A DNA stretch of 64,000 bases, from NCBI GenBank assembly GCA_903928895.1, contig CAIYSR010000093.1:124001-188000 (forward strand), written 5' to 3'. The number at the start of each line of letters is the position of its first letter. The first letter of the stretch is position 1. The translations under genes were made by a program, and so were the position numbers. Of the stretch, positions 39,841-52,579 are shown in pieces. A model generated the notes under the pieces. The model saw nothing but the letters and a program-made list of their open reading frames with translations. It ran no database searches and had not been told where the DNA came from. This DNA is from an uncultured Rhodospirillales bacterium. GTDB taxonomy: Bacteria; Pseudomonadota; Alphaproteobacteria; Acetobacterales; Acetobacteraceae.

Positions 39841-39851
39841 TCCCGGCAAGG

Positions 39852-39894
39852 GAAGCGCTTCTTTTTTCGAAAAAAAAGCAAAAAAACTTCATCC
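39852..39894 (+). repeat. Dispersed AT-rich palindromic repeat, copy 1
   Basis: Starts GAAGCGCTTCTTTTTTCG, then an A-run, GCAAAAAAACTTCATCC. It is nearly identical to copies at 39982, 51547 and 52432. The core is a self-complementary GCTTCTTTTTT/AAAAAAGAAGC arm pair. It lies right after the cysK stop codon. Confidence 0.85.
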
Positions 39895-39918
39895 GATATG
39901 ATCCTGCGACCCGAAGGC

Positions 39919-39948
39919 GGGCGAAGCCAAGATACACTGGCTTCGCCC
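39919..39948 (+). terminator. Hairpin downstream of cysK
   Basis: GGGCGAAGCCA (39919-39929) pairs perfectly with TGGCTTCGCCC (39938-39948) across an 8-nt loop, followed by CTTCCTTTGG. A stem of 11 bp without a real T run fits a weak intrinsic terminator or structural element. It sits exactly between two inverted copies of the AT-rich repeat. Confidence 0.55.
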
Positions 39949-39981
39949 CTTCCTTTGGTCTGTTCCCGACAACCCCTTAAC

Positions 39982-40024
39982 GAATAGAAGTTTTTTGCTT
40001 CTTTTTTTCAAAAAAGAAGCGCTT
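39982..40024 (-). repeat. Dispersed AT-rich palindromic repeat, copy 2 (inverted)
   Basis: On the minus strand it reads AAGCGCTTCTTTTTTGA, then AAAAAAGAAGCAAAAAACTTCTATTCG, given here in two parts. It faces copy 1 head-outward across 87 bp. It lies just beyond the phosphatase stop codon. Confidence 0.85.
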
Positions 40025-40029
40025 GCTTG

Positions 40030-40779
40030 CTACTCCACAAGCGCCGCCCGCAACGCCGCCCGCCGCGACGTGGTCAGTCCGAGCCTCGCCTCCAGATACA
40101 AATCCACGCTCCCATGGGCCGCCTCCATCGCCGAGAACCCGGCGTCGAGGAACATCGGGTGCACCGAGGTCAGGATTTCCCCCGCCACTTGTGCCAGTCC
40201 TTCGCGGATTGCCGCGCCGCCGCGCCACAGCCGCGTCGTCGCCAGGTAGTCCGCCTCAATCGTCGCCCGCTCCACCCCGAGCGCCGCTAGGATCAGCGCC
40301 GCGCCGAACCCGGTCCGGTCTTTCCCCGCCGTGCAATGGAACAGCAGGGCAGGGGCCTCGGGCTCCAGCAGCAGGTCGAACATCGCAGCGTAGCGGTGAT
40401 GCCACACCATCGCGTAGGACGCGTAGGCATTGGCCATCAGCGCCATGATATCCTGCCGCGCCGCCTCGCCTTGCGCCGCGAGATCCTTCATCGCCGGCCC
40501 CAGCGAGGGATCAATCGACAAATCATGGATCACCACGCCGGGCAGCCGTGTCGGCGCCGCCGCCTGCTCGCCGGCCCCGCGCAGATCGACCACCCGGCCA
40601 ATCCCCGCCGCAAGCAGTGCCGCCCCATCCGCCTGCGTCAGCTCAGACAGCCGTGCCGAGCGAAACACCCGCCCGAACCGCACCGTCCCGCCGTCGCGGG
40701 TCCGGTAGCCCCCGAGATCCCGCACATTGGAGGCGCCTTCGAGCGCGATCGTGCGCGGAAGCTCGGCCACGTCGCTCAC
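40030..40779 (-). CDS. Tyrosine phosphatase-like protein (DSP/PTP-type)
   Basis: 249 aa. The PTP signature is present as HCTAGKDRTGFG, with the nucleophilic Cys and the phosphate-binding Arg. N-terminal NVRDLGGYRTRDGGTVRFG is typical of the bacterial tyrosine/phosphoinositide phosphatase group. GTG 40779 overlaps the stop of the upstream MBL gene (GTGA). A further 60-residue upstream extension lies inside that gene and is rejected. Confidence 0.86.
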   Translation of the reverse strand: MSDVAELPRTIALEGASNVRDLGGYRTRDGGTVRFGRVFRSARLSELTQADGAALLAAGIGRVVDLRGAGEQAAAPTRLPGVVIHDLSIDPSLGPAMKDLAAQGEAARQDIMALMANAYASYAMVWHHRYAAMFDLLLEPEAPALLFHCTAGKDRTGFGAALILAALGVERATIEADYLATTRLWRGGAAIREGLAQVAGEILTSVHPMFLDAGFSAMEAAHGSVDLYLEARLGLTTSRRAALRAALVE

Positions 40780-50375: not shown

Positions 50376-50748
50376 GGCCGCCGCGATGGCGCTCCTTCTC
50401 CTCGCTGGCGCCCCGGCCGCGGCCGGCGACGCTGCCATCGGTCGTGCCCTCGTCGCCGACCGCCAGGCCAGCCAATGCGTCCTCTGCCATCCTGTTCCGG
50501 GCGTCCCCGTGCATATACTCGGTGATCTCGCGCCCGACCTGCGCGGCGTCGGCGCCCGCCTGAGCGCCGATGAAATCCGCCAGCGCCTGACCGATCCCGC
50601 CGCCAACAATCCCGATACCATCATGCCCGCCTACGCGCGGCGCGGCAGCTTCACCAATCCCGGCCGCGCCTTCCGTGACCGCCCGATCCTGTCCGACGCC
50701 GCCATCGAAGACATCGTCGCCTATCTCGCCACCCTCACGGAGGAATGA
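50329..50748 (+). CDS. soxX: Sulfur oxidation c-type cytochrome SoxX
   Basis: 139 aa from ATG 50329, where GGAGG lies 6 nt upstream and the leader has basic residues; it overlaps fccB by 47 nt. ATG 50386 is an alternative that leaves an uncharged signal peptide. Heme site CVLCH and the Met ligand in DTIMPAY are present, with GDLAPDLRGVGARLS between. SoxX pairs with SoxA to link sulfur compounds to SoxY. Confidence 0.85.
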   Translation: MRNPGSIRSRPKPSVEAAAMALLLLAGAPAAAGDAAIGRALVADRQASQCVLCHPVPGVPVHILGDLAPDLRGVGARLSADEIRQRLTDPAANNPDTIMPAYARRGSFTNPGRAFRDRPILSDAAIEDIVAYLATLTEE

Positions 50749-51188
50749 TGCAGCGCCGTTTCCTGCTCGCCGCCGGCGCCGCCCTGCTGGCCCTTCCCGC
50801 CGCACCCGCACACGCCACCCGCACCGACGTCGCCGCCGCCATCTCCGCCCTGACCAAAGGCGCCCCGCTGCGCCCCGGCCGGGTCAAGCTTGACCTCCCC
50901 CTCCTGGTCGAGAACGGCAACACCGTCGCCTTGAGCCTGGCGGTGGCCGAACCGCTGCCGCCGGGCGAGCGCGTGCTCTCGCTCCACGTCTTCGCCGAAG
51001 GCAACCCGCTGCCCAACGTCATCAACGCCTTCTTCGGCCCGCGCAGCGGCGACCCCCATCTCGCCACCCGCATCCGGCTCGCAACGTCGCAGACCGTCAT
51101 CGCCGTGGCCGCCTGCGCCGATGGCAGCTTCTGGACCGACAGCGTCGAACTCCTCGTCACCCTCGCCGCCTGCGTCGACGAGATCTGA
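50748..51188 (+). CDS. soxY: Sulfur carrier protein SoxY (non-canonical C-terminus)
   Basis: 146 aa with a signal peptide (QRRFLLAAGAALLALPAAPAHA) and a SoxY immunoglobulin-like core (LPLLVENGNTVALSLAV, HVFAEGNPLP). The usual GGCGG swinging-arm tail is missing: the protein ends LVTLAACVDEI, leaving one Cys four residues from the end. This cysteine may still carry the sulfur substrate. ATG 50748 gives better spacing from GGAGG than ATG 50745. Confidence 0.82.
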   Translation: MQRRFLLAAGAALLALPAAPAHATRTDVAAAISALTKGAPLRPGRVKLDLPLLVENGNTVALSLAVAEPLPPGERVLSLHVFAEGNPLPNVINAFFGPRSGDPHLATRIRLATSQTVIAVAACADGSFWTDSVELLVTLAACVDEI

Positions 51189-51190
51189 CC

Positions 51191-51511
51191 ATGGCCCGGC
51201 CACTCATCAACGTGCCCAAAACCGTCAGGCGCGGCGACAGCTTCGAAATCCGCATCCTCATCGCCCACCCGATGGAATCCGGCCAGCGGCGCGACGAATA
51301 CGGCAAACAAATCGCCCGGGACATCATCCACAGCTTCCTCTGCACCTACGCCGGCGAGGAAGTCTTCCGCGCCGACTTCTTCCCCGCTATCGCCGCCAAC
51401 CCATTCCTCGCCTTCACCGCCCGCGCCGTGGAAACCGGCCGGCTCGTCTTTACCTGGACCGACGACCACGGCGCCGTCGCGTTCGATACGGTGGAAATCG
51501 TGGTTGAATGA
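51191..51511 (+). CDS. soxZ: Sulfur oxidation protein SoxZ
   Basis: 106 aa without a signal peptide. Starting INVPKTVRRGDSFEIRILIAHPMESGQRRD and ending TVEIVVE, it matches SoxZ (landmarks SFEIRILIAHPMESG and FFPAIAANPF). SoxZ forms the SoxYZ carrier complex and is exported with SoxY. It follows soxY by 2 nt. Confidence 0.92.
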   Translation: MARPLINVPKTVRRGDSFEIRILIAHPMESGQRRDEYGKQIARDIIHSFLCTYAGEEVFRADFFPAIAANPFLAFTARAVETGRLVFTWTDDHGAVAFDTVEIVVE

Positions 51512-51530
51512 AATTCATGGGCGGGAGGAG

Positions 51531-52367
51531 ATGAAAGGTAGCAAGAGAAGCGCTTCTTTTTTGGAAAAAAGAAGCAAAAAACTTTTATCCGGTAGGGATT
51601 TTTCTATATATTTCGCGACTATTATTTATGCAATAGTTTTATTTATGTTTCAGGGAGGAGTCGCCCACGCCGCGCCGCACTCCGGCTATGACGACGCCGG
51701 GCCACAGGTCCGCGCCATGCAGGATGACGATACCCAGAATCCAGGCTTCCTCTGGGTCCAACAAGGCGAAACCCTCTGGACCGAAGCCGCGGGCAGCCGT
51801 GCCACCAGCTGCGCCACCTGCCACGGCCCCGTGACCGCCATGCGCGGCGTCGCCGCCCGCTACCCCGCCTTCAACCCGGCCACCGCCACCCCCATCACCC
51901 TCGCCCAGCGCATCAACCACTGCCGCACCGAACACCAGGGCGCCACCCGGCTCCCCCCCGAAAGCGATGCCCTCCTGGCGCTAAGCACGCTCGTCGCCGT
52001 GCAGTCGCGCGGGCTGCCGCTGGCAATCGACGACACCGGCCCGCTCCGGCCGTTCATCGCCGCCGGAGAAACCTTCTTCCGCACCCGGCAGGGCCAGCTC
52101 AACCTCGCCTGCGCCACCTGCCACGAAGAACGCGCCGGCCACCATCTCGGTGGCGCCCTGATCCCCGAAGGCCACGCCAACGGCTACCCGCAATACCGCC
52201 TGGAATGGCAGAAACTCGGCAGCTTCCCTCGCCGCCTGCGCGCCTGCATGCTCGGCGTCCGCGCCGAACCCCTGCCCGCCGACGCCCCCGACGCCACCAA
52301 TATCGAACTCTACCTCGCCGTCCGCGCCCGCGGCCTGACCGTCGAAACCCCCGCCGTCCGCCCCTGA
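51531..52367 (+). CDS. soxA: Sulfur oxidation diheme cytochrome SoxA (repeat-derived leader)
   Basis: 278 aa. Two heme motifs CATCH (Cys 94/97 and Cys 194/197) and the active-site Cys 239 in LRACMLGVRAEP are intact. With SoxX it forms the enzyme that attaches thiosulfate to SoxY. The first 47 residues form a signal peptide with a long basic n-region, a hydrophobic AT-rich-coded core and AHA|AP cleavage. Residues about 6-20 (RSASFLEKRSKKLLS) are translated from the dispersed repeat at 51547-51590. GGGAGGAG lies immediately before ATG 51531. soxB and soxK do not follow. Confidence 0.88.
   Translation: MKGSKRSASFLEKRSKKLLSGRDFSIYFATIIYAIVLFMFQGGVAHAAPHSGYDDAGPQVRAMQDDDTQNPGFLWVQQGETLWTEAAGSRATSCATCHGPVTAMRGVAARYPAFNPATATPITLAQRINHCRTEHQGATRLPPESDALLALSTLVAVQSRGLPLAIDDTGPLRPFIAAGETFFRTRQGQLNLACATCHEERAGHHLGGALIPEGHANGYPQYRLEWQKLGSFPRRLRACMLGVRAEPLPADAPDATNIELYLAVRARGLTVETPAVRP
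51547..51590 (+). repeat. Dispersed AT-rich palindromic repeat, copy 3, inside soxA leader
   Basis: Contains the perfect arm pair CTTCTTTTTT / AAAAAAGAAG around GG, then GCAAAAAACTTTTATCC. It is in frame with soxA and has no stop codon in that frame. AT-rich sequence continues to about 51655, beyond the shared part. Confidence 0.88.
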
Positions 52368-52394: not shown

Positions 52395-52429
52395 AGAAGG
52401 TTTTTTGGTTCTTTTTTTCAAAAAAGAAC
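52395..52429 (-). repeat. Dispersed AT-rich palindromic repeat, copy 4 (left arm of inverted pair)
   Basis: On the minus strand it reads GTTCTTTTTTGAAAAAAAG followed by AACCAAAAAACCTTCTC. It is a slightly diverged copy (GGTTC instead of GCTTC). It abuts copy 5 through a shared AGGCCT centre. Confidence 0.8.
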
Positions 52430-52431
52430 AG

Positions 52432-52471
52432 GCCTTCTTTTTTGGAAAAAAGAAGCAAAAAACTTTTATCC
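52432..52471 (+). repeat. Dispersed AT-rich palindromic repeat, copy 5 (right arm of inverted pair)
   Basis: Reads CTTCTTTTTTGGAAAAAAG then AAGCAAAAAACTTTTATCC, identical to copy 3 across its core. Copies 4 and 5 together form a 77-bp outward-pointing inverted repeat between soxA and the MaoC genes. Confidence 0.88.
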
Positions 52472-52579
52472 GTTTGAAAATGAACGATAACTGGGGGTGT
52501 GGCATATGGTCGTCAATCGGGTATGCTCACGCCAGCGCCCGGCACCAGACCAGGCCACACCAACCACGCGGAGGACCCA

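What the first reader, a model, noticed from the sequence alone, without database searches (positions are those of the whole stretch)
51531..51671. SoxA signal peptide built from a mobile-type repeat
The repeat copy at 51547-51590 is in frame and encodes residues about 6-20 (basic n-region) of the SoxA leader. The following AT-rich stretch encodes the hydrophobic core, and cleavage fits AHA|AP. The whole leader is compositionally foreign to the GC-rich gene body. It looks like an intergenic repeat captured as a secretion signal.
Basis: partly seen in the sequence, partly recalled or inferred. Interest (0 to 1): 0.7.

Follow-up and report, generated by a model that had tools for sequence, protein, structure and literature searches.

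The report
Repeat DNA captured as SoxA leader
In an uncultured relative of acetic acid bacteria, a short palindromic repeat scattered through the genome sits at the start of the sulfur-oxidation gene soxA and appears to encode the front half of the protein's export signal; related lineages did the same independently, showing that repeat DNA can be turned into signal sequences.

Summary
The segment at 51543-51591 is one of about 300 copies of an inverted-repeat family in this genome (0 hits for a reversed control pattern), and it lies in frame in the SoxA leader. Of 119 soxA 5' ends read (some are duplicate records), only four distinct leaders carry the repeat. In the same genus, G003 has it in the same frame; G001, G002 and G004 have short GC-rich leaders starting at the soxZ stop. 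G000 (the window) and G003 are sisters (100/99), so one insertion in their ancestor fits best. Separate insertions hit the same soxZ/soxA junction in two other genera, and a solute-binding-protein leader in G000 and G003 was captured too. In G003 the hydrophobic core is a decayed reverse copy; in the window the core's origin is not shown. In G000, G003 and G130 every in-frame start that keeps a hydrophobic core lies in or before the repeat. Most likely a repeat that settles beside stop codons landed on the ATGA overlap, detached soxA from its own leader, and survived because its A/T runs encode Lys/Phe/Leu in most frames. Translation and export are inferred, not measured. Precedent: Yersinia RU-2 in YPO1552.

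The parts
51191..51511 (+). soxZ; its stop overlaps the ancestral soxA start (ATGA at 51508-51511)
   Evidence: Pfam SoxZ 7.6e-26, NCBIfam SoxZ_true above cut-off
51508..51534 (+). 8-codon mini-ORF MKFMGGRR*, begins at the ancestral soxA start position; its TGA overlaps the new soxA ATG
   Evidence: sequence read directly; a role in translational coupling is inference
51531..52367 (+). soxA with the repeat-containing leader (ATG 51531, preceded by GGGAGGAG)
   Evidence: NCBIfam thiosulf_SoxA 202.6 bits, cut-off 110; start choice inferred
51543..51591 (+). forward copy of the repeat, in frame, encodes the basic n-region (about residues 5-20)
   Evidence: family of about 300 copies
51592..51655 (+). 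AT-rich stretch encoding the hydrophobic core; in G003 the matching stretch is a decayed reverse repeat copy, here not recognisable
51656..51671 (+). GC-rich, native-looking c-region ending at the predicted cleavage site AHA|AP
   Evidence: compare GTCGCCCACGCC with G004 GTCGCCCAGGCG
52400..52472 (.). reverse/forward pair of the same repeat just after the soxA stop codon, intergenic
39848..40030 (.). complete forward/reverse pair of the repeat with a GC-rich hairpin spacer, intergenic, for comparison

Best explanation
The soxA leader is a signal peptide whose n-region is translated from a copy of a high-copy inverted-repeat family. Steps: (1) the repeat sits close to stop codons and mostly stays intergenic (shown statistically); (2) in the ancestor of G000 and G003 it was inserted at the soxZ stop/soxA start overlap, separating the soxA body from its short native leader (inferred from empty-site relatives and the tree); (3) the open frame through the repeat encodes a Lys/Arg-rich stretch, and the AT-rich DNA that follows, a decayed reverse copy in G003, encodes the hydrophobic core, joined to the native cleavage region (shown in sequence for G003, only partly for the window); (4) SoxA is exported by Sec with this leader and receives heme in the periplasm (inferred). 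Selection kept in-frame versions because SoxA is useless without export; no benefit of the repeat itself is needed.
For: Repeat family 296 matches against 0 control. Same-frame repeat in sister G003, absent in G001, G002, G004 and the rest of the soxA 5' ends except two independent cases. G000+G003 clade 100/99; the label needs 3 changes on the tree, at least 2 forced by supported branches. G003 core matches the reverse copy, 0 of 2000 shuffles as good. Every in-frame start leaving a hydrophobic core lies in or upstream of the repeat in G000, G003, G130. Net length difference between G000 and G003 from repeat to mature end is 15 nt, a multiple of 3 (counted from sequences). The ancestral overlap start (ATGA, GTGA, TTGA) is in frame across the insertion in G003, G130 and CAMBRC. 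SoxA is intact: family score and both CxxCH motifs. A second gene, SBP_bac_5, shows the same history in G000 and G003 with plain leaders in the other three species. The leader is signal-like: n-region charge +6, core Kyte-Doolittle 2.55, AHA end.
Against: No expression, proteomic or export data. No signal-peptide predictor was available; only simple charge, hydropathy and cleavage-motif checks. The leader is long (47 aa against 15-22 aa in relatives). The window core itself does not match the repeat (982 of 2000 shuffles as good). The repeat segment differs at 1 of 44 sites between G000 and G003 while fourfold sites of soxA differ at 33%, which also fits two recent insertions or homogenisation by other copies.
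Confidence: 0.82

Rival explanations
1. The repeat is an ordinary intergenic element between soxZ and soxA, and SoxA is initiated downstream by an unusual start, so the repeat is not translated.
For: Most repeats near gene starts are followed by a normal ATG, and a REP survey warns that N-terminal repeats may be annotation artefacts (PMC3733652). In CAMBRC a TTG or GTG downstream of the repeat would give a short leader like its relatives.
Against: In G000 the only later start is ATG 51645, giving MFQGGVAHA; in G003 there is none; in G130 only LLPLLTAQAQA. SoxA carries covalent heme and must be exported (established knowledge).
Confidence: 0.1
2. G000 and G003 acquired the repeat independently, after their split, at the same hot spot (still a translated leader in both).
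For: 1 of 44 differences within the repeat against 33% at fourfold sites; two further genera show insertions at this very junction.
Against: Same orientation, frame and downstream GGATTTT; sister species on the tree; the SBP_bac_5 leader insertion is also shared by exactly these two.
Confidence: 0.25
3. The captured repeat is kept for its RNA hairpin, tuning soxA translation, and its coding role is a by-product.
For: The palindrome is intact, 10-11 bp with a 4-nt loop, and the repeat is conserved better than the gene.
Against: The region folds no better than shuffles, z -0.68; in the G003 SBP_bac_5 leader the palindrome has decayed while the frame stayed open.
Confidence: 0.12

Closest known systems
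Yersinia YPAL/RU-2 repeat in the exported protein YPO1552 (Delihas 2007, PMC2759123; review PMC2229807)
   Different: There a hypothetical protein and one event; here a conserved enzyme with empty-site relatives in the same genus, several independent events at one junction, and further genes
Rickettsia palindromic elements (RPE), protein-coding palindromes (summarised in PMC2229807, PMC10969869)
   Same: Palindromic repeats read in frame within conserved genes
   Different: RPEs interrupt genes and change the protein product; here only N-termini are affected and the insert supplies a targeting signal
GTAG and CGTC REP repeats (PMC3733652)
   Same: Short palindromes in inverted dimers, mostly downstream of convergent or co-directional genes
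   Different: No GTAG or CGTC tag in the consensus, A/T-rich stem, no RAYT-type (PF01797) gene in this genome; that survey reports no CGTC repeats in Acetobacteraceae

Membership tests
SoxA (TIGR04484) | curated family score | tested here: met
   202.6 bits, cut-off 110
SoxA (TIGR04484) | N-terminal export signal | tested here: inconclusive
   signal-like by charge, hydropathy and AHA motif only; no predictor or experiment
REP (GTAG/CGTC, RAYT-linked) | GTAG or CGTC tag at one end | tested here: not met
   consensus AAGGGAAGCGCTTCTTTTTTGAAAAAAAGAAGCAAAAAACTTTTATCCG
REP (GTAG/CGTC, RAYT-linked) | RAYT transposase in the genome | tested here: not met
   PF01797: no match in G000; control rings in 5 of 14 genomes
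REP (GTAG/CGTC, RAYT-linked) | inverted dimers, 3'-end location | tested here: met
   116 of 116 neighbouring pairs inverted; 61 convergent, 73 co-directional, 4 divergent among 155 copies
MITE | terminal inverted repeats and target-site duplication from a known IS | not tested
   pairs are inverted, but target duplication and a parent IS were not examined
Protein-coding palindromic repeats (RPE-like) | repeat translated in frame within conserved genes | tested here: inconclusive
   in frame and needed for a signal in G000, G003, G130 soxA and in SBP_bac_5; translation not measured

The most novel reading that the evidence does not exclude
This repeat family is a recurrent, ready-made source of export signals: because its T-runs read as Phe/Leu and its A-runs as Lys in most frames on both strands, and some reverse copies carry an ATG (MDKSFLLLFFKKEAL), it can replace or rebuild signal peptides where it lands at gene junctions, giving lineage-specific leaders in several secreted proteins.
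Probability: 0.4. Interest if true: 0.75.

Novelty: new variant of a known kind. Interest (0 to 1): 0.62.

Why it matters
How new signal peptides arise is rarely visible. Here the before state (short native leader), the insertion, and different after states can all be read in living relatives for one well-known enzyme, and for a second gene, so the birth of a targeting signal from repeat DNA becomes directly testable. It also suggests why overlapping operon junctions in secreted-protein operons tolerate such insertions.

Tried and rejected
RAYT link: no PF01797 in the genome. Known RNA family: only a tRNA in the window. Plasmid copies of the whole element: none. A reverse-copy origin for the window's own core: not detectable. 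Unusual stability of the leader mRNA: none. Many candidate captures were dropped because a normal start follows the repeat. The DUF6675 gene (L146) and the ABC permease (L160) remain ambiguous, since a GTG or TTG at or just after the repeat could be the start.

Full report
What is there. The window lies in a genome of 5.57 Mb in 191 contigs, in a genus of uncultured Acetobacteraceae (relatives' records). Upstream of soxA lie soxY- and soxZ-like genes. SoxA (51531-52367) passes the curated SoxA cut-off and has two CxxCH heme motifs. From ATG 51531, preceded by GGGAGGAG, the leader reads MKGSKRSASFLEKRSKKLLSGRDFSIYFATIIYAIVLFMFQGGVAHA, then APHSGY. The repeat copy at 51543-51591 is in frame and gives the basic stretch. 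GC drops from 0.72 in the body to 0.34 and 0.28 in the leader.

The repeat. A 19-base core pattern (one mismatch allowed) gives 296 matches in this genome and none for the reversed control; the four other species of the genus have 92 to 137, G008 has 98, and most of the family has none. From the copies read, 306 are distinct, and the consensus of 155 is AAGGGAAGCGCTTCTTTTTTGAAAAAAAGAAGCAAAAAACTTTTATCCG: an A/T-rich palindrome with a tail. Neighbouring copies within 130 nt are always inverted (75 forward/reverse, 41 reverse/forward, no direct pairs). Copies lie next to 3' ends: among 155, 61 between convergent genes, 73 between co-directional genes, 4 between divergent genes, with the forward copy typically a few bases after a stop codon (genes called by my own codon-usage script). 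No RAYT gene is present, so it is REP-like in habit but not shown to be a REP family.

Comparison of soxA 5' ends. Of 119 soxA 5' ends (some are the same locus from two collections), repeats occur in the leader only in G000, G003, G130 (L228, L295) and CAMBRC010000115 (L216); these also have the lowest leader GC. In G004 the leader is MRRLALLLCLLATVAQA|APR, starting at the ATGA that overlaps the soxZ stop; G001, G002 and G008 are alike. On a tree of 59 SoxA proteins, G000 and G003 are sisters (100/99), CAMBRC sits in a fully supported group whose six other members lack the repeat, and three label changes are needed, two of them forced by supported branches. G130 belongs to the same genus as G008, which lacks the repeat. 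So insertion at this junction most likely happened about three times.

How the leaders are built. G003: MSDGREVSASFLKKRSKKLLSAADFVKDCSQSLAGKVFFLLFLLVLIPIVTCA; the forward copy gives SASFLKKRSKKLLS, and the core DNA CGGGTAAGGTTTTTTTTCTTCTTTTTTT matches the reverse copy (0 of 2000 shuffles as good). G130: both copies of the pair are read...RTKVFCFFFPKKKILALTLLLPLLTAQAQA, with a native-looking core. CAMBRC: MKFFCFFLFTKRRFLLVLVCLGLLGA, although a shorter TTG start after the repeat is possible. In G003, G130 and CAMBRC the ancestral start that overlaps the soxZ stop is still in frame through the insertion. In the window it is out of frame: it now opens an 8-codon mini-ORF, MKFMGGRR*, whose TGA overlaps the new ATG; that this passes ribosomes on is inference. 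In G000, G003 and G130 no later start leaves a usable core.

Other genes. A family 5 solute-binding protein has the reverse copy inside its signal peptide in G000 (MRLTSTKKSLMDKSFLLLFFKKEALASLLAATLLTTPALA) and a decayed, still open version in G003 (MRLTLKRTRFFAGCFAKQAALAGLALMLAAPAFA), while G001, G002 and G004 have plain leaders. A TPR protein in G000 (L101) has its only start in the spacer of a pair. A DUF6675 protein and an ABC permease are possible further cases. These are a small share of the 306 copies; most repeats near starts are followed by a normal start codon, as also seen in a sample from other genomes.

Why it works. Of the twelve frame and variant combinations of the consensus on both strands, nine have no stop and two more have one only at the edge; all are rich in Lys/Arg and Phe/Leu. 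That this predisposes the repeat to work as a leader is inference: n-regions tolerate length and need positive charge, h-regions need hydrophobic residues (established knowledge of Sec signals).

Doubts. The repeat segment differs at 1 of 44 positions between G000 and G003, whereas fourfold sites of soxA differ at 33%. Constraint, homogenisation by other copies, or separate recent insertions could each explain this. The origin of the window's core is not shown. No expression evidence was available.

Literature. Small repeats fused in frame to genes are known (PMC2229807; PMC10969869), and Yersinia RU-2 forms part of the predicted signal peptide of YPO1552, whose homologues have unrelated signals (PMC2759123). 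REP surveys report the same 3'-end preference and inverted dimers and warn about misannotated N-termini (PMC3733652). I found no description of this Acetobacteraceae repeat in the searches made; the library holds only open-licence papers.

Noticed in passing
50745-51188: The SoxY-like protein ends in AACVDEI rather than GGCGG and is closest to the NCBIfam 'SoxY-related AACIE arm protein' (160.3 bits, just under its cut-off of 172); the carrier of this sox cluster may be a paralogous type.
   Followed up: no
51508-51534: An 8-codon mini-ORF (MKFMGGRR*) starts at the ATGA overlap with soxZ and its stop overlaps the new soxA start, a possible chain of coupled reinitiation.
   Followed up: partly
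L304 3-1247 and L344: SBP_bac_5 signal peptide carrying a reverse repeat copy in G000 and a decayed in-frame version in G003; orthologues in G001, G002, G004 lack it.
   Followed up: yes
L101 1537-2301: TPR protein whose only in-frame start lies between the two copies of a repeat pair; found in G000 only within the genus.
   Followed up: partly
L160 1238-2107: ABC permease N-terminus with a GTG inside the repeat and a TTG just after it; N-terminus possibly repeat-encoded.
   Followed up: no
39848-40030: Full repeat pair encloses a GC-rich hairpin spacer (GGGCGAAGCCA...TGGCTTCGCCCC); forward/reverse pairs fall into spacing classes of about 35 and 85 nt.
   Followed up: partly
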